Positions 27,030-58,601 of a DNA stretch of 64,000 nucleotides are shown here, piece after piece. Position numbers and translations under genes: made by a program. The stretch is from Multifurca ochricompacta (lineage: Eukaryota; Basidiomycota; Agaricomycetes; Russulales; Russulaceae): assembly GCA_022496185.1 (NCBI GenBank), contig WTXG01000164.1, forward strand, positions 19,215 to 83,214. Reading direction: 5' to 3'. Each line of letters opens with the position of its first letter. Position 1 is the stretch's first letter. The notes under the pieces are model-generated. The model did no database searches. It had not been told where the DNA came from and worked only from the letters and a program-made list of their open reading frames with translations.

Positions 27030-27625
27030 TGTTACAAACCCCACTGCATCATCTTGTTCTTTTCCTTTTCACATGACTCATTGTTTGGCCTTGCTTGACT
27101 GTTGTTGATCATGTTTGTGCCTTCATTTGTACATGTTTGTTTCTTATCTCTGACCCAGGCTGTGCTTATCTATGACTTGTACTTTACATCAGGACTCTTA
27201 CATATTTTCCCACCAGAATCGCAGTTATACTGGATATGTCTTGGTATATTCTCATCTGACCCACTCTGGCCCTGTTTCCCCTTTTAGTTACATTATGACT
27301 TTGTTGATACACTGAGTGTGTTACTCCAATTCAGACTCCAATTCCTGCTGCATATATAAGGCCCACTTAGATAGCCTGTATGCCTCAGACTTGACTTCTT
27401 AATCAACTTGGTGCATTACCTTCTGGGTGATCTCTAAAGACCTGACCTCTGAATCATCTCAGTGCTTCTGGCACTCTTCTGCTCACCAGTACTAAGGGAT
27501 TAGCTCCTTGGTATTGACTTCTCACCCAAACTCTGTACACTTGAAAGACAGTGTACACTTGAACTTGTAGTTACGCTACACAACTAAGTCACATGTCATG
27601 CTGAATGCCCACACCAGGCATTACA
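27030..27625 (+). repeat. Gypsy-2 5' LTR
   Basis: Starts TGTTACAAACC, ends GGCATTACA. A TATA box CATATATAAGG lies at about 27352. Against the 3' LTR it shows many CA/TG opposite-strand pairs, for example CCCCACTG against TCCTGCTG at the left end. The gag ATG (27605) lies inside its last 21 bp. Confidence 0.93.
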
Positions 27626-29173
27626 TTAAGTCAAGTCTCCCCCACTGTGGCTTCATCTAGTCAAAGCCAGACTCTGCACAATGAAGAACTCATCAACTGC
27701 CAAGACGAGGATAATCTTTCACAACAGGTCCTTGGTTCTGCCATCTGGAAAGATTTTGAAACCAAGTTTGGATACTACATCTATCATGATGACCAGTACC
27801 AGCCAGTTGAATACAACAAACAAAAACAGGTTTGGTACTGTATCCATTACTCTAGAAGCCAGCATTCCTGGGTCACTACAGGACCTGCCCCACCAGAATA
27901 TGGCTTAGGACCTTGGAGAGAGAATCCTCCTGCCATCATTACCAACTCTGAACCAGAAGAATTTATCAAGGAAAACAGCAAAGACACACAAGTTATAGCC
28001 ACTAGTTTTATGGCTCCAACAGTTGCACCTGAGACCACCACATTCAGTAGATCTGCTTTGGTGTATCCCCAGATTACACAACAGACTTCCAACACTCCAA
28101 CCATTGTCTACCCAATTATGTTGACTATTGCTGCACAGTTACCCGACCCTGCTCCCCCTGCTCCAATTCTGAACCTCCCCTCCCCATCAGGATGCCTTTT
28201 GGGAGTCCTGCCAACCACCTTCACTGGTGATTGTTCTCAGAGCAAAAAGTTCATGCTTGAGTTTGAAACCTTTAAGAACTTCAATCATGACATCCCGCAG
28301 ATCGTCAACCCCTTCCAATGCACCAACCTTTTCCTTTCACTCATTAGAGGGGATGCTGTTGACAACTGGACCATGGAGCAGATTGAGTGGCTGAATGACT
28401 GAGTCACAGCTGGAACTTGGACCACAGATGAGGATCTGTGGGATATAGTGGCACAGAGGTTTAAAGACGCCTTTACAGATGGGCAAGCCAAGCAGAAGGC
28501 TGCCAGAGAGTTGAAAACTCTGAAGATGGAGAGAGGTGACCTGGATGGATATGTTGCCAAGTTTCGTAACCTGGCCAAGCAAGCAGGATATGATGTAAAT
28601 GAGGAGGCTACACTCAACCTCTTCTCCCAGGGACTGCCCAACCCCCTGGTGAAAAATATCATCCAGTTTCATCATCCTGAGACATGGGGCCAATGGACAA
28701 ACACTGCCAGGAGACAGCAGCAAGATTATCTGGATTTCCAGATGTGCTTTGGCATAGATATGAAAAAGGGTAAAACCTGAGAACAGTGGAAGGCAGCATT
28801 CAGGGTAAAGCCCACTACACCATGGGACCCAATGCTATGGACACCTCAGCAGACTGAACCAAGGCCCATGCAGTGCTTACCGATGATGAGAAGAGGACCC
28901 TTATGAAGGAAGGGCACTGCTTCCACTGCCAGGCCCAAGGGCACATGTCCAGGTTCTGTCCCAAAAAGACAGTTTGGGCTGCAGAAGCTACCATAGCCAC
29001 CACTTCTACTGCAATGTCCACCACCCCACCACCCACTCCTGCATTAGCAACTTGCTGACTGCCCCAAAGACCAAGGAGCAGAAAGCAGAAGCCCTCTGGA
29101 ACAGCATGATGAATGAGATGAAGGAGTATGCTCCATAATAGTAGAGAAGGCCTTTGGCCAGAAGGATTTTTGA
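27605..29173 (+). pseudogene. Gypsy-2 gag with CCHC knuckle
   Basis: Starts MPTPGITLSQVSPTVASSS at 27605, within the LTR end. A conserved N-terminal region (SQQVLGSAIWKDFETKFGYY, GPAPPEYGLGPWRENP) and a Pro-rich linker follow. The capsid-like core has LPTTFTGDCSQSKKFMLEF, FKDAFTDGQAKQKAA and LFSQGLPNPLVKNIIQFHHP. The zinc knuckle CFHCQAQGHMSRFC is at 28918-28959. TGAs at about 28400, 28780, 28857 and 29056 and small indels break the frame. Gag ends with QKDF and TGA at 29171-29173, overlapping the -1 frame of pol. Gag forms the particle and binds the RNA genome. Confidence 0.85.
29164..29173 (+). promoter_or_regulatory. Candidate -1 ribosomal frameshift site, Gypsy-2 gag/pol
   Basis: GGATTTTTGA: in the gag frame GAT-TTT-TGA stops, while one base back GGA-TTT-TTG continues as GFLIGLTPLAWARALHVTS into pol. 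The same GGATTTTTG is present at the same place in Gypsy-3 (48758) and Gypsy-4 (56479-56487, minus). Confidence 0.6.
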
Positions 29174-33353: not shown

Positions 33354-34705
33354 ATGTTGATCTTCAACATTCACTCCTCTGCTGCTATCAATGTGTTTCC
33401 CTTACTTCCTACTGCTCATGCTCCTTCTTGTCCACTTTCTCCTATTGACTATGATGTGGCTGCCAAAGTGGCCAAAGGGATCAGAACCCCCAACACCAAT
33501 CAAGATTTTAATCTGCCCAAACACCCACACCCAAATGACCTAATTGACATCAACTTCAGTGACGAGATACCCAACTTCCCCTTCTTCCCAAATGATCCAA
33601 AGTCCCCCTTTTATTTTCCCCTTATGATCCCCACATCCCAAGGAGATGGCAAGACCAAGATTGCCAAGTACATTTATTACACAAACAAAGGTATGGTGTT
33701 ATGTCCAGTGCAGGATGTTTCCACATGACTTGTGTGACAGCGTTGTACATGTATTCAGATAAGAAGCCAATAAGACTTCTTGGAGTTAAGTGGGACAAGT
33801 CAAAGTCAGAGGGGCTGTTCCCTAAGATGATGTTAAGCAGGAAAGCGCCAGAAGCACTGAGACAGATGAGTCAAAGGGTTCAAGGGGAAGTCCAGAAGAC
33901 AAGCACTGATGTATTCAATAAGTCAAGTCTGAGGTCTACAGCATAGTTACAGCAGACTTATATACATAATTGAATGGGCATCTATGAGATAAGGAAATGG
34001 AGTCAAGTGGGCCTGAATATATGAAAGTGGAGGGCATAAAGCCTGGCTTCTGATAGGGAATTAAGTAAGTGTCTGGTCTTAGAGATAAGGAGATACAAGA
34101 TAAGCTGATAACAGTGAACAATGTACAAACAAGTCCAAATACAGTCATGGGGATGGGAGGAGAGCATGTGATGGATCCCAGGAGGGGGATGTAATCAGAA
34201 AGTGTAGTGTAGGTGGGAGAGCTGGGTTCGCATTGGGGAGGGTAAAGAAAAGAGGGGTGCTCAGTGGGGTTTGTAACATATGGATGTAGCAGGCTGTCTG
34301 GAGAAAGGAGGGCCAGTGTATGGGGCCCCTGTCTGCCTTGAAGAAAAACAAATTGACTGCCTCCACTATGTCTTGGGGCCAGAACATTTAGAACATCTCT
34401 CCAGCACTGACCCCCATGCCTTTGCAATCAATGAGGTCCTCCATGATTTGCATATGCTGTGACTTACTGCCAAAGTTGCATGGCTGCTTAAATTTCAAGC
34501 ACTTAAGGCCAACCTCAACATGCAGTACAATGATTATACAAGGCAGATGACAAGGATTTTGCAGGGTATCTTTGATGTTGAACAGCATCTAGTGTCCATT
34601 AGGACACAGTTGGAGGTGGGAGAGGCATATCAGACCATATCAGAACAGTACACCGACATTTTTGCCTGGCCTCTCCCTTGTTGTCCCCTTGAACTCACAC
34701 CCTGA
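33354..34705 (+). pseudogene. Gypsy-2 accessory ORF2, split by a solo LTR
   Basis: Opens MLIFNIHSSAAINVF at 33354. An acidic region follows (DINFSDEIPNFPFFPNDP), then KIAKYIYYTNKG. After the solo LTR and one TATGG copy are removed, the frame is exactly preserved into MDVAGCLEKGGPVYGAPVCL, then HAFAINEVLHDL, a TGA, and a heptad-like helical C-terminus (RQMTRILQGIFDVEQHLVSI, GEAYQTISEQYTDIFAWPLP). The stop is at 34703-34705. The same protein is encoded in Gypsy-4 (52175-53068). No known enzyme or capsid domain is recognised, and its role is unknown. Confidence 0.75.
33697..34278 (-). repeat. Solo LTR of the Gypsy-4 type, inside Gypsy-2 ORF2
   Basis: 582 bp starting TGTTATGTCCAG and ending GTTTGTAACA, with TSD TATGG (33692-33696 and 34279-34283). 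It aligns along its length with the 593-bp LTRs of Gypsy-4 (51101 and 58009) in the same printed orientation, so the element orientation is minus. Nearly all CpG sites of the Gypsy-4 LTRs appear here as TG or CA, indicating an older copy. Confidence 0.9.
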
Positions 34706-34726
34706 CTTAATCTGAGTTGCCTCAAA

Positions 34727-35131
34727 ATGCCATGTCTGCATGAAAACCCAGGAGGTCAGACTTGCTGGTGCTGCGGCAGCAAGCACCATCTCAGCTGGTG
34801 TTGCCCCACTGCCAAGAAACAATGTTGACACTGCCAGAGCACATCACACTGGAGCCACCAGTGTCTGTTCCACCACCTTACACAGGCCCCCACCATTCTC
34901 AACCCATCTGGGTGGTGTGGCAAGTGCCTCTCCCACAATGCTGGTCATTGAGAAATTGACTGTCACATTTATGACTGCTGCTTTTGATGTGGGAGGTGAG
35001 GGCCCTATGGTTTTCTATGAACACACATTTGCCCCATGGACAAAGACAAGGAGAATTATGATGCTGACCACTATGCTGTAGCCAACAACTACCTCTCCTT
35101 GGTACAGGATGATGATGGTATGCCAATCTAG
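34727..35131 (+). pseudogene. Gypsy-2 accessory ORF3: multi-zinc-knuckle protein
   Basis: ATG at 34727, 134 codons to TAG at 35129. It begins MPCLHENPGGQTC. Knuckles: CWCCGSKHHLSWCC and CWHCQSTSHWSHQC (two C-x2-C-x4-H-x4-C units), then NPSGWCGKCLSHNAGH and further Cys pairs, ending DKDKENYDADHYAVANNYLS and VQDDDG. Four TGAs lie between GH and THIC; no TAA or TAG occurs before the end. Gypsy-4 has the same layout (51725-52135). It is probably nucleic-acid-binding, by analogy with Gag knuckles; actual function unknown. Confidence 0.75.
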
Positions 35132-36393: not shown

Positions 36394-36504
36394 AAGTGTG
36401 GGGCATGCTGATTGGACCGTGCATTGCCTTCCTATCTAGGAAGGTAGGCTTAAGAATGCATGCGTCGGCACACGTCAGTACAGAGATGCCAGGATCACAC
36501 CTAA

Positions 36505-37095
36505 TTGATAAGATCAAAAACGCGTTCACAATTAATTAGATACTTAGGATATACATCTAAGTGATAAGATCAAAAATGTGTTCACAGTTAATTAGATACT
36601 TGCGGTATACATCTAATACAAGTGATAAGATCAAAAATGCATTCACAATTAATTAGATACTTAGGATGTACATCTAAGTGATAAGATCAAAAATGCGTTC
36701 ACAATTAATTAGATACTTAGGATGTACATCTAAGTGATAAGATCAAAAATGCATTCACAATTAATTAGATACTTGGGATATACATCTAAGTGATAAGATC
36801 AAAAATGCGTTCACAGTTAATTAGATACTTAGGATATACATCTAATACAAGTGATAAGATCAAAAATGCGTTCACAATTAATTAGATACTTGGGATGTAC
36901 ATCTAAGTGATAAGATCAAAAATGCATTCACAATTAATTAGATACTAAAGATATACATCTAAGATAATACAAGTGATAAGATCAAAACGCATTCACAATT
37001 AATTAGATACTAAAGATATACATCTAAGATAATACAAGTGATAAGATCAAAACGCATTCACAATTAAATAGATACAAGTGATAAAATCAATTCTG
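36505..37095. repeat. Minisatellite, about ten 56-66 bp units
   Basis: Each unit contains GTGATAAGATCAAAAATGCG-like text, TTCACAATTAATTAGATACT and a short GATATACATCTAA segment. About ten units plus a partial one are present. Some units carry an extra AATACAA before GTGATAAG, and the last full units lack two As. Differences between units include CG/TG/CA changes in the GCGTT position. Confidence 0.9.
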
Positions 37096-50258: not shown

Positions 50259-51100
50259 ATGCCGTCCTCTATTGTCTTCCCTCCCTCCTCCAAGATGGAG
50301 CGCCTCGATGGGTCAAACTGGCAGGTTTGGTCTGCCAACTTTAATGCCCTTTTGAGGATGAATGGGCTCAGGAGGCATATTATTACTGCCTATCCTGATA
50401 TGCCCCTCCTCCCAGAGGATAAAGATGAAAAAGAAAAAATGCAGAAGGAGGTTCTTGATCCCATCCTTAGGGAATGGATGGGAGAAGAGGAAATGTTAAT
50501 TGGGCTACTTTACCTCAATGTTACCCAGGAGGTTTACAGTCAAGTAACCTCCGATGCTGATTATCCTTCTCTTTTTGAGAAGTACAATAAGTTGGAGTGG
50601 CTTTATGGTACTGTAGGGAGCATGGCCATGTATAATTTGTGGCTTGCCCTGGTGTCCTTCCGTCTAGATGAAGGACAGACATTCAGGACTCAATTACAAA
50701 GAGTCCTGGATGCCAGGAGTACCCTTAGGGAGAACGGGATGGAGGTCAATGACCTCCAAATGAGCTTCATTTTATTGAAGGCTCTCCCTGACTCCTACAG
50801 TGCCATTGCCGGCTCTATACTAGCATCTGGCAATCCAGAGCGGCTCTCTCCTCAGGACCTTGTGCAGAGGTTCCTAAATGAGGAAAGTCGCCTGGCAGGT
50901 CCCTCAGGAAGTGGTAGTGCTGTCCTATCTAAGGCAGCACCTGTCAAATCAAACAAACCAAAAATTATATCACCACTTCCTGCTGCTGCCCCTGGTTCAC
51001 AAGGGGTGGTCTGCTTCTATTGCCAAAAGCCTGGACACAAGTCCAACGCTTGCACAAAGAAGAAGAAGGACCTGGAGAATGCCAAAAAGGGCAAGGCAGG
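50259..51100 (+). CDS. Copia-A gag (5' part of Gag-Pol)
   Basis: ATG at 50259: MPSSIVFPPSSKMERLDGSN, then WQVWSANFNALLRMNGL, the Copia Gag start. The helical core includes VTQEVYSQVTSDADYP, YNLWLALVSFRLDEGQTF and DLVQRFLNEESRLAGPSGSG. The zinc knuckle CFYCQKPGHKSNAC lies near 51012-51053, then a Lys-rich stretch. Gypsy-4 is inserted after GKAG. The reading frame continues exactly at 58607 when Gypsy-4 and one GCAGG copy are removed. No stop before that. It forms the particle and binds RNA. Confidence 0.9.
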
Positions 51101-51693
51101 TGTTACGTCTGGTGTGAGACGTTCTGCACGACTTGTGTGACAGCTTTGTACGTTTGTTCAGATAAGAGATCAATAGGACCTCTTGGAGTTCGGATGGATG
51201 AGTCAAAGTCAAAGGGGCTGTTCCCTAGTGACGATGTTGAGTAGAAAATGCCAAAAGCACTGAGATGATCGAGTCAAAGGTTTCAGGGGAGGAGTCCAGA
51301 AGACAAACACCGATGTATTCAATAAGTCGAGTCTGAGGTCTACAATGTAGTTACAGCAGACTTATATACGTAATCGAATGGGCGTCTATGAGATAAGGAA
51401 CCAGAGTCAAGTGGGCCCAAATATACGGAAGCGGACGGCGTAGAGTCGAGCTTCTGATAGGGTATTAAGTAAGTGTCCGAACGTAAAGATAACAAGATAA
51501 CAAGATAGGAGATAAAGGTCAAACACAGGCATACAGCATGTCAACAAGTCCAAAGCAAGTCACAGGGAGGGGAGTAGAGCACGTGATGGGTCCCAGGACG
51601 GGGATGTGATCATGAAATGTAAGGTAGGCGGTAAGGATGGGTCGCTGTTGGGGAGGTGGAAAAAGATGGGGCTGCTCAGCAGGGATTGTAACA
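51101..51693 (-). repeat. Gypsy-4 3' LTR
   Basis: Printed strand TGTTACGTCTGG to GATTGTAACA, the partner of 58009-58601. The minus-strand polypurine tract AGAAGAGGGGGTGA lies just inside at 51694-51707. Confidence 0.95.
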
Positions 51694-51724
51694 TCACCCC
51701 CTCTTCTGGTTCTAGCAGACCCGG

Positions 51725-52135
51725 CTAGAAATGACTCGTACCGTCATCATCCTGCACCAGGTCTAGATAATCATTGGCTACATTACGATCATCCAACGTG
51801 TAATTTTCCTTGTCCGAGTCTTGCAGACACTGGTGGGTGCAGAGAAACCCATACGGGCCGCGCTGACCACAAAGGCAACACACATCATGGATTGGACAGT
51901 CCAACTCCCAATGTCTGGAGTTGTGGCGGAGACACTTGCCGCACCATCCCGACGGATTGATGATTGTTGGGGCGACCCCCACGCGGCGGAAGATACAGAA
52001 TCGGCTCCAGTGGAGGTTACTGTGACAGTGCTGGCACCACTTGCGATTGAGGGGACAGTTCCAGCTGATATGGTACTTACTGTCACACCGCCAGCATGTT
52101 TCTCCCCGAGGGTTCTCGTGCATACGCAGCATTTC
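51725..52135 (-). CDS. Gypsy-4 accessory ORF3: multi-zinc-knuckle protein
   Basis: 136 codons from the first in-frame ATG (52135), beginning MLRMHENPRGETC. The frame is open further upstream to about 52171, so it may be fused to or frameshifted from ORF2, which ends at 52175. Knuckles CWRCDSKYHISWNC and WCQHCHSNLHWSRFC are regular C-x2-C-x4-H-x4-C. NPSGWCGKCLRHNSRHWELD and VCCLCGQRGPYGFLCTHQC supply more Cys/His pairs. The acidic tail has DKENYTLDDRNVANDYLDLV then QDDDG. No internal stop. The homologue in Gypsy-2 (34727-35131) keeps the same cysteines. Probably binds RNA or DNA; function unknown. Confidence 0.8.
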   Translation of the reverse strand, partial: EMLRMHENPRGETCWRCDSKYHISWNCPLNRKWCQHCHSNLHWSRFCIFRRVGVAPTIINPSGWCGKCLRHNSRHWELDCPIHDVCCLCGQRGPYGFLCTHQCLQDSDKENYTLDDRNVANDYLDLVQDDDGTSHF

Positions 52136-52174
52136 AAACCAGTTCGGTATCAGCCTCGGGGCAGCCCCCAATGA

Positions 52175-53068
52175 TCATGGGGGAAGGGGTCGTGCATACG
52201 TGTCGGCATACCGTTCAGCGATAGTCTGATAGGCGTCCCCTATCTCCAGCCTTTTCCTAATCTCCACCAACTCCTGCTCCACTTGGAACATCCCGTTAGT
52301 CAGCCTTGCCATCATTTTCGCATGCTCCTTGTATTGTTTATTGAGCGTCATGCACAATGTTAGATTCTTCCACAGTCTCATCACCTCGGCTTTGAGATGC
52401 GGAAGGCGCATGTCGCTCAGTACTTCATCGATTGCAAAGGCGCGAGAGTCCTTGGCAGCCAAGTGCCTGAGCTGCTCATCAGTCATTGTGTGATGAAGAC
52501 GTCCTGTATACCTTTCTTCTAAATAGACTGGGGCCCCATAGACAGGGCCATCTTTCTTCATACATCCCGCTACATCCATTCCTCCATTGGTGTAGAATAT
52601 GTATTTGGCAATGGCGACAGTTCCGTCAGCCATGGTGATTTCGAGGGGGAAGTAGGTCGATGAGTTGGGGTTGTTGGCAAAAAAGGGGAATTCCGGCACC
52701 TCGTCATCCAACTCCATACCCAACAGGTCATTTGGGTGTGGTTCTTCGCTGTGTTCGAAGTCGTCGTTCGGGTTCGGGGACTGGTTCTTGACCTGGGCCT
52801 CAGCAGCTTTGTAGTCAATAGGAGAGGAGGGACACGTGGAGGGATGGGCAGAGGGGAAGTTCTCAACCACTACGGTGGTGGCAGTGAAGGCATCGATAGC
52901 AGTGTTGGCAGCGACAAAGGACATGATAGACTGGATGGTGTTAGGACTTTGCTGAGAGAGCATGTACTGGGGAAATCGATGGGGTCTTGGGGCATTTCTT
53001 TTAAGCATTCCTAGGCGCTTCTGGATGCCAAATATGGAACTCCGAGATAAGGGTCGGAGCAGAGACAT
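52175..53068 (-). CDS. Gypsy-4 accessory ORF2: coiled-coil protein
   Basis: 297 codons from ATG at 53068, overlapping the integrase end (53001) by 68 nt in another frame. Residues ~1-40 are basic (RSSIFGIQKRLGMLKRN). Residues ~75-130 are acidic and Pro/Asn-rich (ELDDEVPEFPFFANNPNS). Then KYIFYTNGGMDVAGCMKKDG, PVYGAPVYLEERYTGRLHH and AFAIDEVLSDMRLPHLKAEV. The last 90 residues look like an amphipathic helix (MMARLTNGMFQVEQELVEIR, LEIGDAYQTIAERYADTY). No stop inside. It is conserved with Gypsy-2 ORF2. No known domain; a structural or RNP role is a guess. Confidence 0.8.
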   Translation of the reverse strand: MSLLRPLSRSSIFGIQKRLGMLKRNAPRPHRFPQYMLSQQSPNTIQSIMSFVAANTAIDAFTATTVVVENFPSAHPSTCPSSPIDYKAAEAQVKNQSPNPNDDFEHSEEPHPNDLLGMELDDEVPEFPFFANNPNSSTYFPLEITMADGTVAIAKYIFYTNGGMDVAGCMKKDGPVYGAPVYLEERYTGRLHHTMTDEQLRHLAAKDSRAFAIDEVLSDMRLPHLKAEVMRLWKNLTLCMTLNKQYKEHAKMMARLTNGMFQVEQELVEIRKRLEIGDAYQTIAERYADTYARPLPP

Positions 53069-54699
53069 CCCCGGCTGGTTCCCACGAGTTGTCAGAGTCT
53101 GGGAATCCCTTCCACTTGATTAGGTAGTACAGTTTGTGCCCTCGGCCTTGTCGCTTGGAGTCTAGAATGCGCTCCACTTCCCATTCTTCTTTGCCATCGA
53201 TAAGGTCAGGTGGGGGTCTTGGGAAGTTCCCTCCATGAATGGAGGTTTCCTTGTAAGGGGTCAGAAGCTTGGCATGGAAGACTGGGTGGATCTTCCATTT
53301 CGGCGGCAACCACAGTTCATAAGATACGTCTGACAACTTCCTTGTGATCTGGAAGGGTCCGTGACGTCGGGGCGCTAGCTTGGCCAAGGGGTGTGACGTG
53401 TGAATGTTCCTGCCCTTGAGCCATACCCAGTCATTGGTCTGATAAGGTGTGAATGTGCTTGGCTGTGCTGCCAGAAGCTGTTGCGCCTTTACCAGATTTT
53501 CATTGGCTGATTGCCGCAGTTCTTCCCATTGGCTTATCCGTTCGGTTACTGACGGGACGTTGATGGGCTTATCTGTCCATGTGGTGCGTGGAGTCCAGCC
53601 CATGATAAGGGAGAAAGGGGGGGCTTTTGTCGTTCCATTGGGCCATGAGTTATGAGCGAATTCTGCGGTCGACAGCCATTTTGCCCAGTCATCTTGCCTG
53701 CTGTTGCACCAAAACCAAAGATACTGTTCCAACCATTGGTTTGTCTGCTCGGACTGTCCATCTGTTTGTGGATGGTATGCTGTCGAGATGTTTTGTGTGA
53801 TGTCCAATGTTTTGCATAGGGCCCTCGCAAATGCCGATGTGAAACGGGTATCTCGGTCAGAGATGATCTTCTTAGGGAGTCCATAGTGACGGTATACATG
53901 GTCCAGGTATAGTTTTGCCACTCCTTCAGCTGTGATAGTTTCATTACAGGGAATGAAGAGGGCTACTTTGGAGCAATCATGGTCTGTGATTGTAAGGATA
54001 GTGTCAAAGCCCTGTGACTTTGGCAGCTTGACAATGAAGTCCATGGCGATGGTCTGGAAAGGAGTCGATGTAGTGGGAGTGATGGGGTGCATTGGTGGGA
54101 CTTTCGGGTGCGTGTTCACCTTGTTTGCTTGACACGATGCACATCCTTGTACATAGCTCTCGATGTCCTTTTTCATATTGGGCCACCAATAGTCTCTTTT
54201 GGCCAGGGCGTAGGTGTTGGCAATGCCCGGATGGCCAGCGGAGGGAAGGTCATGATGAAAATGGATCACCCCCCTCTTAATGTTGTCACCACCGGTGACA
54301 ACGAGTCAATCCCCATCTTTCCACCAAAGACCACTGATTTTCTTCAAATTGTGAGCGTCGGCCCATGACAGGCACAGGTCTTGGTTCATATTTTGGGAAA
54401 CTTGTGCCCAAAGGTCCATGTCATGGAGACTGACGACGGCCGTCTTGGCAAATACCTCCTCTGGGAGGACAGTGATATCGTTATTGTCGTCTTCCCCTGT
54501 ATGCATGTCTGGTCTGCGCGACAATGCATCTGCTCTAGCGTTCTGACTCCCAGCAATATGTTTCAGCACGAAATTATATTCTTCTAACTCCAAAACCTCT
54601 CGTGCCACACGTCGACTGATTTTGGGGTTCTTTCCAGTATAATAGGTTGGAATGATCAGTGTGGATGATGGTCTTATGAGGGGTTCCTGCCAGGTAGGG
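53001..54699 (-). pseudogene. Gypsy-4 RNase H end, integrase and chromodomain
   Basis: Minus strand: AREVLELEEYNFVLKHIAGS, NARADALSRRPDMH and VSLHDMDLWAQVSQNMNQDL, then one TGA near 54306. The integrase follows: HFHHDLPSAGHPGIA and CASCQANKVNTHP (HHCC), MDFIVKLPKSQGFD, ISDRDTRFTSAFARAL and DGQSEQTNQWLEQYL, giving catalytic D-D-E. Then FQITRKLSDVSYELWLPPKW and a clear chromodomain (EEWEVERILDSKRQ, YYLIKWKGFPDSDNSWEPAG). From 54269 to the stop at 53001 there are 422 open codons. A 1-bp deletion near 54630 separates it from the upstream RNase H. Confidence 0.9.
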
Positions 54700-56478
54700 T
54701 CACCAGTGTCGCAATGCCTTGACTATGGCTAAGAGCTCCCTGTCCCAGATGTCGTAATTCCTCTCAGCCGGGGAGAAGGTTTCGGAGTAGTATGCCACTG
54801 GGTGAAGCACTTGTGTGGCGTCTCTTTGGTATAATACTGCCCCATTTGCAAAGTGTGAGGCGTCCACTTCTACTTCAAAGGGGTGGCCTAGATCTGGTTG
54901 GATAAGCACTGGTTCTGAGCCGACAAGGTCCCTAATCTGTTCAAATGCCTGCTGCTGTGCGGTATTCCAATGCCATGGTATATCTTTTTTCAGTAGGTCG
55001 TTCAATGGTCGTGCTATGCCTGAAAATCCCTTGACGAATCGTCGGTAAAGTTACAGAATCCAATGAATGATTGGACATCCTTGATGCAGGTTGGCACAGG
55101 CCACTCCTGGATTCCTTGTACTTTAACAGGATCCATGCGCACTTGTCCTCCCTCCAAAATAACTCCTAGGTACTCGACGCTCCGTTGTTCGAAGGAGCAT
55201 TTGGTGGGTTTGAGATATAGATCATGTTTGTGCAATATGTCCAACACCTGATGCACGCAGCTTCGGTGATGGTCCAAGTTATCGGGGGTGGCTACTAAGA
55301 TGTTGTCCATATAGACCACTACTTCTCCCATGAGAATGAGATCGCGGAAGATGTGGTTCATCATAGACTGGAATGTCGCTGGCGAGTTCGTGAGGCCAAA
55401 GAACATGACATTGGGTTCGAACAACCCTTGATTTGTTTTGAACGCCGCCTTGCACTGATTGCCTTCCTTGATTCTAACGTTGTTGTAACCCCATCGCACG
55501 TCCATCTTTGAGAAGAGGGACTTATCCCTCATAGTGTCAATGAGCTCAGAGATGAGCGGCAGGGGGTAGGCATTTTTTCACGGTGTATGCGTTGATTTGC
55601 CAGTAATCCTGAACTGGTCACAGCTTGCCATCCTTCTTTTTGATGAAGAAGAAGGGCGAGGCATACTGTGACTTGGATGGGCGAATGTATCCTTTTGCCA
55701 AATGTTCTTCAAGGAATTCCGTTAGTGCCACCTGCTCGGACTGGGACAGCAGGTAGATTTTGCAATCTATTGCGGTTGGCATATCAGGGAGTAGGTCTAT
55801 GGCGTGGTCCCATGGTCTGGAGGGTGGAAAATGCTGGGATTCTTCTTCGGAAAACACCTTCCAATGCCGATGGTAGATACTCGGCACTACATCACTGTAT
55901 GTCTTTTCTGTCTGCCCTTGTATTGCCTTTTGGGCTAGCTCTGATGCTTTGGTGGCATAACAGCGACCTGGGTCTTCTTCTTCTGTACTTGTGGCTTTTA
56001 TTGTCGGATGTCAGACTGCATAGTCATAGCCTATTGACATAATGATGGTGGGATATGATTCTTTATCCATTGTTGCGTCAGCCCAGTTGATCTTGGGTTC
56101 AAATGCGGCAAGCCATGGGTACCCCAGAATAAGATCTTCATCTCCCAGATCCGTAACTAGGAAATGAATGTTCTTCGTAGCCTCTCCAACCTGGACCTTT
56201 AGATCCGTGTAGTGAGTGATCTTTCCAGCGCGATTGGCTGTCCCATCAATATTCCAAATGTTCTTTTCCTGGGGAAGTGCCAGCCATCCCAAGCCCATTG
56301 TTCTGATTAATCATGGGTGAATAAAATTGTCTGTGGCTCTGGAGTCCACTAGAATGTCTCGATTGGCCGTCCTCTGTGTAGTTTCAAAATGGACTGGTAT
56401 TTTCAATGATTTGAATTGACTAGCATACACAGAGGTAACATGGAGTGCTTGTGCCCAGGCTGATGGGTTTGAGCCTAA
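54700..56478 (-). pseudogene. Gypsy-4 protease, reverse transcriptase, RNase H
   Basis: The pol frame begins in the -1 frame at 56479-56487. The protease reads ILVDSRATDNFI (Gly to Arg beside the catalytic Asp), then LVTDLGDEDLILGYPWLAAF. Reverse transcriptase from 55887: SIYHRHWKVFSEEESQHF, QYASPFFFIKKKDGKL, TGA, PVQDY. An extra A in AAAAAA (about 55577) is followed by MDVRWGYNNVRIKEGNQ, VVVYMDNILVATPDN (the second catalytic Asp is Asn, about 55303-55314) and SFIGFCNF, with a 1-bp deletion near 55045. RNase H: FEVEVDASHFANGAVLYQRD and DRELLAIVKALRHW, then TGA. Mutations have killed the catalytic sites. Confidence 0.9.
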
Positions 56479-57989
56479 CAAAAATCCTTTTTTGCAAACG
56501 CCTTTTCTACCAGTATGGCGCACACTTCCTCACTCTCCTTCATCATGTTAGCCCATATATCCTGAGCTTTCTCTTCTTTCGACCGCTTATCCGCAATGGG
56601 GGGGTTATTCTGAATGGGATGTTCTGGCATTACGGTGGCAACGGCGACTCGCACTCCCTTCTTGGGGCAGTCTCGGGACATATGTCCCAGTGCTCTGCAA
56701 TGGAAGCAGTGCCCTTCCTTCATTAGGGTCTGCCGCTCGTCTTCCATAAGTGCTGCTCGAGCTCAGGCCCAATCTGTGGAGGTATCCATAGCATTTGGAT
56801 CCCGCTGGCCATGCTGGATGGGCTTTACTCCGAACGCTGCCTTCCACTGGTCTCAGGTCTTTCCTTTCTTAGTGTCCACTCCAAACCTCGTCTGGAAATT
56901 GAGGTAGTCTTGTTGCTGCCTCCGAGCAGCATCAACCCAAGTATCCCAGTCATGAGGATGGTGGAACTGGATAATGTTCTTGACCAGGGGGTTGGGTAAG
57001 CCTTGCGAAAAGAGGTCTAGCATTGCTTCTTTGTCAGTGTCATAGCCAGCCCTGTTGGCTAAGCTTCTGAACTTGGCCACGTAGGCATCAAGCTCTCCTT
57101 TTTCCATTCTGAGGGACTTAAGTTCCCAGGCTGCCTTTTGTTTGGCCTGCCCGTCTGTAAAGGCATCTTTGAACCTTTCGGCTATGGTCTCCCAAAGACC
57201 TTCGCTTGTGGTTCGGCACCCACTTTCAACCTGTTCGTTCAGCCACTCCAATTGTTCCATCATCCAGTCATCCACTGCATCCCCTTGGATTAGGGAAAGG
57301 AACAGATTGGCACGTTGAAATGGATTGACAATCTGTGGGACGTCATGATTGAAGTTTTTGAATGTCGTGAACTCCAGCATGAATTTCTTGCTTTGTGAAC
57401 GGTCCCCAGTAAATGTTTGGGGCAACACTCCGGACAGACGTCCAGAGGGGGGGGGAATGTTTGGTGGTGGTGCCACAGGGGCTGGTAGGGTGGGGTCTGG
57501 AAGTTGGGCGGCGATGGTAGACATGGGTGGATGAGATAGGGTGACGGTTTCTGTGGATTGTATCAATATCTGGGGAGTTGTCAAAGCAGGGGCTCTGAAC
57601 GTGACAACTGCGGGTGCAACCGGAAACGTAGTCGCTGCTAATGCCGGTGCTTCTTCTTCACTAGGTTCTTCTACGTACTCCTCTGGTTCGGAGTCTGTGA
57701 CAATGGCCAGGGGATTTTCTCTCCACGGGCCTAGTCCAAATTCAGGTGGGGCAGGTCCTGTAGTGACCCAAGAGTGTCGGCTGTCTGAATATCGGATACG
57801 ATACCAAACTCTCTTTTCGTCGTCATATTCTACCGGTTGGTATCTTCCATCGTGATAGACGTAGTATCCAAACTTGGACTCAAAGTCTTTCCAGGTGGCA
57901 GAGCCAAGTACTTGCTGTGAAAGATTATGCTTGTCTCTGCGTTTGATAAGTTCTTCCCAGAAGAGGGTCTGACTGCGGCTGGAAGCCAC
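56475..57989 (-). pseudogene. Gypsy-4 gag with CCHC knuckle
   Basis: The open frame starts at or before a GTG at 57989 (VASSRSQTLFWEELIKRRDK). No in-frame ATG precedes it after the LTR, apparently because of a 2-nt loss relative to Gypsy-2. Core: LPQTFTGDRSQSKKFMLEFT, FKDAFTDGQAKQKAAWELKS and LFSQGLPNPLVKNIIQFHHP. A TGA at about 56855 stands before DQWKAAFGVKP and another near 56768. The knuckle CFHCRALGHMSRDC lies at about 56674-56715. Gag ends KKDFC with TAG at 56475-56477. Confidence 0.87.
56479..56487 (-). promoter_or_regulatory. Candidate -1 frameshift site, Gypsy-4
   Basis: Minus strand GGATTTTTG. The gag frame reads GAT-TTT-TGT-TAG; the -1 frame reads GGA-TTT-TTG-TTA into GSNPSAWAQALHVTSVY and the protease. 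The frame arithmetic was checked: gag and pol differ by exactly -1. Confidence 0.6.
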
Positions 57990-58008
57990 TGTGAGAGACT
58001 CGACTTGA

Positions 58009-58601
58009 TGTTATGTCCGGTGTGAGACGTTCTGCATGACTTGTGCGACAGCTTTGTACGTTTGTTCAGATAAGAGATCAATAGGACCTCTTGGAGTTCG
58101 GATGGATGAGTCAAAGTCAAAGGGGCTGTTCCCTAGTGACGATGTTGAGTAGAAAATGCCAAAAGCACTGAGATGATCGAGTCAAAGGTTTCAGGGGAGG
58201 AGTCCAGAAGACAAACACCGATGTATTCAATAAGTCGAGTCTGAGGTCTACAATGTAGTTACAGCAGACTTATATACGTAATCGAATGGGCGTCTATGAG
58301 ATAAGGAACCAGAGTCAAGTGGGCCCAAATATACGGAAGCGGACGGCGTAGAGTTGAGCTTCTGATAGGGTATTAAGTAAGTGTCCGAACATAAAGATAA
58401 CAAGATAACAAGATAGGAGATAAAGGTCAAACACGGGCATACAGCATGTCAACAAGTCCAAAGCAAGTCACGGGGAGGGGAGTAGAGCACGTGATGGGTC
58501 CCAGGATGGGGATGTGATCATGAAATGTAAGGTAGGCGGTAAGGATGGGTCGCTGTTGGGGAGGTGGAAAAAGATGGGGCTGCTCAGCAGGGATTGTAAC
58601 A
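58009..58601 (-). repeat. Gypsy-4 5' LTR
   Basis: Printed strand TGTTATGTCCGG to GATTGTAACA. Nine differences from the other LTR, each a CG against TG or CA. Confidence 0.95.

What the first reader, a model, noticed from the sequence alone, without database searches (positions are those of the whole stretch)
51725..53068. Two conserved accessory ORFs downstream of the chromodomain integrase in one Gypsy lineage
Seen: Gypsy-4 has ORF2 (297 codons) and ORF3 (about 137 codons), both open. Gypsy-2 has the same two at 33354-34705 and 34727-35131. Shared signatures include PVYGAPV, DVAGC, AYQTI in ORF2 and the Cys/His spacing, NPSGWCGKCL, GPYGFL and VQDDDG in ORF3. The two elements have unrelated-looking LTRs and many synonymous and CpG changes, so retention of the cysteines suggests selection on a protein. 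Known: standard Ty3/Gypsy chromoviruses encode only gag and pol. Inference: ORF2/ORF3 may be a second RNP, particle or silencing-related module. Function is unknown, and I cannot exclude earlier mention as hypothetical proteins.
Basis: partly seen in the sequence, partly recalled or inferred. Interest (0 to 1): 0.75.

Follow-up and report, generated by a model that had tools for sequence, protein, structure and literature searches.

The report
Extra zinc-knuckle gene in fungal retrotransposons
A mushroom's abundant jumping genes carry, besides their usual two genes, a third one for a strongly conserved protein that probably binds nucleic acid; in one branch it has merged with the enzyme that inserts the element into DNA.

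Summary
The two ORFs are real, but they are one gene. In Gypsy-4, ORF2 and ORF3 lie in the same frame, split by one in-frame stop. In at least 36 of 68 fetched clade A/B copies they form one uninterrupted ORF, mostly 395-399 codons. The Gypsy-2 copy is not open: a solo LTR of the Gypsy-4 family sits inside it, and its second part has stops. The gene fills the pol-to-3'LTR interval. It is under strong purifying selection (pN/pS 0.08-0.18 by clade; 0.10 against 0.135 for integrase in the same 10 loci). Relatives at about 30-36% identity occur in unnamed, mostly metagenomic sources. The build is an acidic N-terminus, a conserved block, a long helix (possible coiled coil), four Cys/His knuckle-like motifs and an acidic tail. 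No Pfam family or fold match was found. In clades A, B and C1 it is a separate ORF whose frame relative to pol varies (A/B), preceded by a conserved pyrimidine-AG motif. In derived clade C2, pol's stop and that motif are gone and the gene is fused in frame to the chromodomain integrase. Best reading: an element-encoded nucleic-acid-binding accessory protein. Nearest functional parallel in print: CERV of Cer1. Function unproven.

The parts
58009..58601 (-). 5' LTR of Gypsy-4
   Evidence: 593-nt match to 51101-51693 with 9 differences; ends TGTTACA...TAACA and flanking GCAGG direct repeat
57235..57980 (-). start of gag of Gypsy-4 (Ty3-type), approximate
   Evidence: 69% DNA identity over 834 alignment columns to the gag start of Gypsy-2; a later segment of the Gypsy-2 gag matches Retrotrans_gag
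55014..55532 (-). reverse transcriptase segment
   Evidence: PF00078 E 7e-26
54700..55005 (-). RNase H segment
   Evidence: PF17919 E 3e-31
53001..54269 (-). integrase with H2C2 zinc domain, SH3-like domain and C-terminal chromodomain; pol stop at 53001-53003
   Evidence: Pfam; the rve core scores 27.8 bits, below its 32.6 cut-off
52967..52973 (-). pyrimidine-AG motif in the pol-to-accessory spacer; candidate 3' splice site (inferred)
   Evidence: AG at the aligned column in 65 of 66 A/B loci, Y5-AG there in 44/48 A and 18/18 B; Y5-AG somewhere in the spacer in C1 4/4 and C2 1/17
52178..52924 (-). accessory gene, N-terminal part from the ATG conserved among copies: acidic N-terminus, conserved block, long helix
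52175..52177 (-). in-frame stop that splits the accessory gene of this copy into 'ORF2' and 'ORF3'
   Evidence: at least 36 of 68 A/B loci have an uninterrupted ORF
51725..52174 (-). accessory gene, C-terminal part: four Cys/His knuckle-like motifs and acidic tail ('ORF3')
   Evidence: ligand positions invariant in 36/36 open copies
51694..51712 (-). purine-rich stretch next to the 3' LTR (probable PPT)
   Evidence: read directly
51101..51693 (-). 3' LTR of Gypsy-4
33354..33695 (+). Gypsy-2 (clade C1) accessory gene, first part, open
   Evidence: tblastn, 49% identity
33696..34279 (+). solo LTR of the Gypsy-4 family inserted in the Gypsy-2 accessory gene, apparent TSD TATGG
   Evidence: about 78.5% identity to both Gypsy-4 LTRs over its whole length
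34280..35119 (+). Gypsy-2 accessory gene, remainder, with in-frame stops
   Evidence: tblastn, 52% and 58% identity

Best explanation
[quoted passage not shown] It encodes a protein of about 400 residues that, by its build (long helix that may oligomerise, four Cys/His knuckle-like motifs, acidic ends), binds the element's own RNA or cDNA as an auxiliary nucleocapsid or integration-complex protein working next to integrase. Shown: one conserved gene; strong purifying selection; invariant Cys/His pattern in open copies; family present beyond this genome; a separate ORF in clades A, B and C1; in-frame fusion to chromodomain integrase in derived clade C2. Inferred: in A, B and C1 it is made from its own mRNA, most simply by splicing to the conserved pyrimidine-AG site, because its frame relative to pol is not fixed. 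Inferred: since fusion to integrase was tolerated and the fused gene is still under selection, the protein acts in, or is compatible with, the particle or pre-integration complex. Inferred: nucleic-acid binding and oligomerisation.
For: Uninterrupted ORF of 395-399 codons in 34 A/B loci picked as open plus two more (L022, L025), of 68. pN/pS 0.080 for 25 open A copies, 0.089 for 42 of 48 A copies with broken ones kept, 0.176 for 15 of 17 C2 copies; integrase 0.135 and accessory 0.102 in the same 10 loci; out-of-frame ratios of means 1.0-2.7. Cys/His ligands invariant in 36/36 open copies and kept in distant relatives P0003 and P0004 except one Cys of P0003. 69-residue helix with block pLDDT 86-98. 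Accessory frame relative to pol is +1, -1 or 0 in 22, 19 and 3 of 44 A/B loci (L017 and L066 uncertain). AG at the aligned spacer column in 65 of 66 A/B loci; spacer counts. C2: no stop at the pol end in 17/17; 889-codon frame with integrase, chromodomain and accessory in L081. Tree: C1+C2 together (0.998), C2 alone (0.971).
Against: No binding, oligomerisation or transcript data. Pfam calls no knuckle in any of 17 A1 members; two distant relatives fall just under the zf-CCHC cut-off (20.5 and 20.4 against 20.8 bits). Overall model confidence is low (mean pLDDT 52 and 62). Heptad periodicity is only suggestive: 154 to 687 of 5000 shuffles reach it. No donor-like site is shared by the two window leaders, which weakens the splicing step. 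The C2 loss of stop and motif is one event in one clade, and 1/17 is near the 2.3 expected by chance, so the association has little weight. The closest pairs show weaker constraint (pN/pS 0.57 in 1 pair with pS under 0.05, 0.20 in 5 pairs with pS 0.05-0.15), as expected of copies decaying after insertion. 13 of 15 C2 copies carry stops in the gene, and only L081 of 17 is open over nearly its whole length.
Confidence: 0.45

Rival explanations
1. CERV/Rev-like regulator: the protein is made from a spliced mRNA and binds unspliced genomic RNA in the nucleus to stabilise or export it.
For: Same place (pol to 3'LTR), metal-type cysteines and a dimerisation-type helix as described for CERV of Cer1 (PMC10309623); acceptor-like motif conserved in A, B and C1; frame independent of pol in A/B.
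Against: No shared donor seen in two leaders; fusion of the protein into Pol in C2 fits poorly with a factor needed before Pol is made; sequence relation to CERV not tested (its sequence was not at hand).
Confidence: 0.28
2. Host-directed protein: it interferes with RNA-based silencing or other host control of the element.
For: Nucleic-acid-binding build; elements are numerous, and copies show one-sided TGA-type decay suggesting cytosine methylation by the host.
Against: Proteins that fight hosts often evolve fast (general knowledge); this one is as constrained as integrase. No known-domain match.
Confidence: 0.15
3. Envelope-like gene in the env position.
For: Location between pol and 3'LTR.
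Against: 19-residue hydropathy maxima of only 1.45, 0.92 and 0.91 in the three members tested; knuckle-type Cys/His pattern.
Confidence: 0.02
4. Neutral leftover: a transduced host gene or an inert integrase tail without function.
For: In C2 it is a Pol tail, and most C2 copies are broken.
Against: pN/pS 0.08-0.18 including broken copies; C2 member L081 and relative P0005 still share 32% identity over 361 columns.
Confidence: 0.03

Closest known systems
CERV of the Cer1 Ty3/Gypsy element (C. elegans), PMC10309623
   Same: Extra protein encoded between pol and 3'LTR, not Env-like; possible zinc-type cysteines; potential leucine zipper; expressed there from a spliced mRNA with a TTTCAG-type acceptor; no obvious homology outside nematodes (abstract, section 15 and passages read).
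   Different: No sequence relation could be tested; CERV has a possible C4-type finger and H, M and G domains, not four Cys/His knuckle-like motifs; its spliced mRNA and export role are shown by experiment, here nothing is.
TRP28 additional ORFs of plant Retand elements, PMC11963269 (abstract and outline read)
   Same: Conserved extra coding region between pol and 3'LTR; possible DNA binding; function unknown.
   Different: Retand ORFs are antisense and in non-chromovirus elements; here the gene is in sense.
[quoted passage not shown] figure not held)
   Same: Same broad group of elements; basidiomycetes included.
   Different: The legend gives no sequence, position or conservation that could be read here, so identity with the present gene cannot be judged.
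Retroviral and retrotransposon nucleocapsid CCHC knuckles
   Same: Two exact CX2CX4HX4C motifs; weak matches to retroviral NC and LIN28 knuckles (best E 0.034, 0.043).
   Different: Not part of Gag; two further motifs have other spacing; the element has its own gag with its own knuckle (read).
ORF3 genes captured by bdelloid LTR retrotransposons, PMC5408684 (abstract and outline read)
   Same: Non-envelope third genes in LTR elements.
   Different: The non-envelope ones named in the abstract are enzymes (esterase/lipase, exonuclease) or small transmembrane ORFs; this protein resembles neither.

Membership tests
Ty3/Gypsy chromovirus (the host element) | paired LTRs with target-site duplication | tested here: met
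   51101-51693 and 58009-58601, 9 of 593 differ; GCAGG on both sides
Ty3/Gypsy chromovirus (the host element) | RT, RNase H, then integrase, with C-terminal chromodomain | tested here: met
Ty3/Gypsy chromovirus (the host element) | codes for gag and pol only (usual description, not strictly defining) | tested here: not met
   third conserved gene
CERV-type accessory gene | located between pol and 3'LTR | tested here: met
CERV-type accessory gene | encoded by a spliced mRNA | not testable with these tools
   no RNA data; acceptor-like motif conserved but no shared donor found in two leaders
CERV-type accessory gene | sequence or fold similarity to CERV | not tested
   CERV sequence not at hand; structure searches with our low-confidence model gave nothing significant
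CERV-type accessory gene | required for export of unspliced element RNA | not testable with these tools
   needs experiment
CCHC zinc-knuckle proteins | CX2CX4HX4C pattern with invariant ligands | tested here: met
   two motifs, invariant in 36/36 open copies
CCHC zinc-knuckle proteins | passes Pfam zf-CCHC cut-off | tested here: not met
   no zf-CCHC hit in 17 members; 20.5 and 20.4 against 20.8 bits in two relatives; one relative, P0008, carries a precomputed PF00098
Envelope protein | transmembrane segment | tested here: not met
   19-residue hydropathy maxima 1.45, 0.92, 0.91 in three members; no dedicated predictor run
Gag (duplicated) | similarity to the element's own Gag | tested here: inconclusive
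   hhalign probability 0.3% against the N-terminal 265 residues of the Gypsy-2 gag; the capsid part was not compared

The most novel reading that the evidence does not exclude
Fungal chromoviruses have independently evolved a Rev/CERV-like regulator: a multi-knuckle, oligomeric RNA-binding protein made from a spliced subgenomic mRNA. One branch has abandoned splicing by losing both the acceptor and pol's stop, and delivers the protein as a fusion to the chromodomain integrase instead.
Probability: 0.2. Interest if true: 0.8.

Novelty: new variant of a known kind. Interest (0 to 1): 0.55.

Why it matters
Fungal LTR elements are usually described as gag-pol only (PMC2864245 reports one or two ORFs for the majority). 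Here an extra protein is about as constrained as integrase across a large, diverse set of elements in one genome, and relatives exist elsewhere. The natural switch between a separate gene and an integrase fusion gives a direct handle on what it does and where it works, and makes testable whether complex, retrovirus-like regulation arose in fungi.

Tried and rejected
Two-gene reading: rejected, same frame and one ORF in other copies. Fixed frameshift or readthrough from pol in A/B: unlikely, because all three frame relations occur. Coupled stop-start reinitiation: not excluded. The conserved ATG lies mostly 73-85 nt after the first base of pol's stop in A/B; passages read in PMC5972666 describe overlapping or very close stop-starts as usual and LINE-1 with a 63-nt spacer as an unconventional case. 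Duplicated Gag: no similarity to the gag piece compared. Structure route: two AlphaFold jobs, then Foldseek against PDB and BFVD with the second model, 0 matches with E at or below 0.001 in each. Viral contigs and prokaryote contigs: no relative. Donor search in the two window leaders: nothing shared. More 5' ends could not be fetched. Paper searches listed no paper whose title or abstract describes this gene, and I read only parts of five papers; subscription journals and repeat databases were not searched, so 'undescribed' is provisional.

Rows dropped and limits: dN/dS means leave out saturated pairs (A 280 of 300 kept, B 40 of 45, AxB 108 of 250), so I lean on pN/pS over all pairs. The comparison of A/B with the C2 member was saturated except 3 pairs of the ORF2 part (ratio 0.141). 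One search used a hand-picked set of 36 open loci and missed L022 and L025; L030 starts there at a later Met. One search's own count of full-length open copies (25 of 48 A, 2 of 20 B, 0 of 3 C1, 1 of 17 C2) is stricter because it depends on where BLAST alignments end, and undercounts B. One search used 15 of 17 C2 and 42 of 48 A loci. The 88 loci were picked mostly from the upper part of the hit lists and favour good copies. One search counts any Y5-AG in the stretch 10-70 nt after pol's end against a mononucleotide shuffle; one search gives the aligned-column count. In one search a few pol stops (for example L011, L017, L024, L042, L059, L066) are premature or spurious, so distances there were not used. 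L052 was filed under B but groups with A. Out-of-frame ratios above 1 are expected when third positions move into other codon positions; they are a contrast, not a neutral expectation of 1.

Full report
WHERE. The window is G000:C73:19215-83214 of a 53.8-Mb, 605-contig genome. A database protein (P0002) named as Multifurca ochricompacta lies on a contig of 244,860 bases, the exact length of contig C301 here, and matches C301 at 99% over 170 of its 209 residues. The host is therefore very probably that mushroom (Russulales); this is an inference.

THE ELEMENT. Gypsy-4 runs on the minus strand between LTRs 51101-51693 and 58009-58601 (9 of 593 positions differ), flanked by GCAGG on both sides. 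It has RT, RNase H, and an integrase with H2C2, SH3-like and chromodomain modules, so it is a chromovirus. Gag starts near 57980 (approximate). The accessory gene fills the space from pol to a purine tract and the 3' LTR.

ONE GENE, NOT TWO. ORF2 and ORF3 are in the same frame and are separated by one in-frame stop. Of 88 fetched loci, 47 have both parts (at least 150 nt of each) in one open frame longer than 340 codons. At least 36 of the 68 clade A/B loci have an uninterrupted accessory ORF: 34 of 395-399 codons, plus L022 and L025. The 297-codon figure for ORF2 includes 48 codons upstream of the conserved ATG which overlap pol and the spacer. The Gypsy-2 copy is broken by a 584-nt solo LTR of the Gypsy-4 family, and its part after that insertion carries stops.

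SELECTION. Nei-Gojobori counts on codon alignments. Open A copies (25, 300 pairs): pN/pS 0.080. All usable A copies, broken ones included (42 of 48): 0.089, CpG-masked 0.064. C2 copies (15 of 17): 0.176, CpG-masked 0.146. In 10 loci with both genes open: integrase 0.135, accessory 0.102. Reading the same alignments out of frame gives ratios of means of 1.0-2.7. With Jukes-Cantor correction on unsaturated pairs the A ratio is 0.034, or 0.026 when CpG is masked. The few closest pairs show weaker constraint (0.57 in 1 pair, 0.20 in 5 pairs), as expected of decay after insertion. Synonymous differences are large (mean pS about 0.6) while amino-acid-changing ones are few (mean pN about 0.05), so the lineages look old. 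Premature stops in the main alignments of 90 sequences (88 loci plus two window stretches, one of which repeats a locus) are 100 TGA, 4 TAA, 2 TAG, a one-sided decay as expected from cytosine deamination.

THE PROTEIN. Alignment A1 (17 members) and A3 with two distant relatives show: an acidic, weakly conserved N-terminus; a conserved block (FPFF.NNP...PL.I...AKYI.Y...G..V..C..K..P.Y...VYL, with small departures in single members); a long helix predicted with block pLDDT 86-98 over 69 residues, whose strongest hydropathy period among those tested is 3.5 residues in five of five members, though 3-14% of shuffles reach it; then C-X2-C-X4-H-X4-C twice, C-X2-C-X6-H-X4-C, and C-X2-C-X11-H-X-C; then an acidic tail. 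These ligands are invariant in 36/36 open copies; P0003 and P0004 keep them except one Cys of P0003. No Pfam family for the window's two ORFs at E up to 5; for A1 members only weak scattered hits, best E 0.034. PDB profile hits are weak and fall on LIN28 and retroviral NC knuckles (best E 0.043) and, for the helix, on coiled-coil constructs (E 0.14-0.5). Whole-model confidence is low, and Foldseek found nothing at E 0.001 or better.

RELATIVES. Profile searches found P0003 and P0004, then 32 proteins at E up to 1 with those two included, from metagenomic or unnamed sources, mostly about 30-36% identical to our proteins. The best of them are predicted as separate proteins of about 420-460 residues. 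Their genomic context could not be seen.

TWO WAYS OF CARRYING IT. In A and B, pol ends at a stop at the aligned column in 65 of 66 loci, and in 4 of 4 C1 sequences pol also ends at a stop. In A/B the conserved accessory ATG follows, mostly 73-85 nt from the stop's first base. Relative to pol its frame is +1, -1 or 0 in 22, 19 and 3 of 44 A/B loci, a few with uncertain pol stops. So no single frameshift or readthrough event can make it in all. The spacer keeps a pyrimidine-AG motif: AG at the aligned column in 65 of 66 A/B loci, Y5-AG there in 44/48 A and 18/18 B. Counting any Y5-AG in the spacer, with the number expected from shuffles: A 44/48 (7.2), B 18/18 (2.2), C1 4/4 (0.7), C2 1/17 (2.3). 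In C2 the pol stop is gone in 17/17, and L081 has one open frame of 889 codons with integrase, chromodomain and accessory. The C2 ATG position stays ATG in 17/17. A tree of the accessory protein (98 sequences, P0003-P0012 as outgroup) gives C1+C2 together (0.998), C2 alone (0.971), C1 alone (0.628) and A+B together (0.938). The simplest reading is that the separate gene is old and the fusion is derived. Copies are related, so these counts are not independent events.

HOW IT MAY WORK. The pyrimidine-AG looks like a 3' splice site that would give the accessory protein its own mRNA, as for retroviral env and for CERV in Cer1, where an ORF between pol and 3'LTR is expressed by splicing and is needed for export of unspliced RNA (PMC10309623; abstract, section 15 and passages read). 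Against this, the two window leaders share no donor-like site. The fusion to integrase in C2, with the gene still under selection, suggests a role compatible with the particle or integration complex. I therefore favour a nucleic-acid-binding, oligomeric accessory protein acting on the element's own RNA or cDNA, and rate a CERV-like export role as the main rival.

NOVELTY. Extra genes in this position are known (PMC11963269, PMC5408684, PMC10309623), and a survey of fungal chromoviruses mentions additional ORFs of unknown function in a figure legend (PMC2864245). Nine searches of the open library listed no description of this family by title or abstract. I call it a new variant of a known kind.

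Noticed in passing
33696-34279: Solo LTR of the Gypsy-4 family (about 78.5% identical) inside the Gypsy-2 accessory gene, apparent TSD TATGG: Gypsy-2 inserted before it.
   Followed up: partly
51101-58601: Gypsy-4 looks nested inside a Copia-like element (gag-like ORF at 50259-51140, more beyond 58601; by reading, not tested). Its LTRs are 98.5% identical, so the insertion looks recent although its coding frames already carry several stops.
   Followed up: partly
L001-L088 accessory gene: Premature stops are 100 TGA, 4 TAA, 2 TAG: strongly one-sided decay, suggesting cytosine methylation and deamination of these elements.
   Followed up: partly
A and B clades: Copies differ little in protein (mean pN about 0.05 in A) but greatly at synonymous sites (mean pS about 0.6) within one genome; perhaps long coexistence, perhaps diversification that escapes homology-based silencing.
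   Followed up: no
36497-37071: Tandem array with 56-61-nt steps next to Gypsy-2.
   Followed up: no
L052 (C30): Two accessory-gene copies in one 3.2-kb stretch, nested or tandem elements.
   Followed up: no
27605-28402 and 57550-57980: The gag N-terminus of both elements shares a block (W.DFE.KFGYY.YHD...QPVEY in Gypsy-2; a close version read in Gypsy-4) that no Pfam model calls in Gypsy-2.
   Followed up: no
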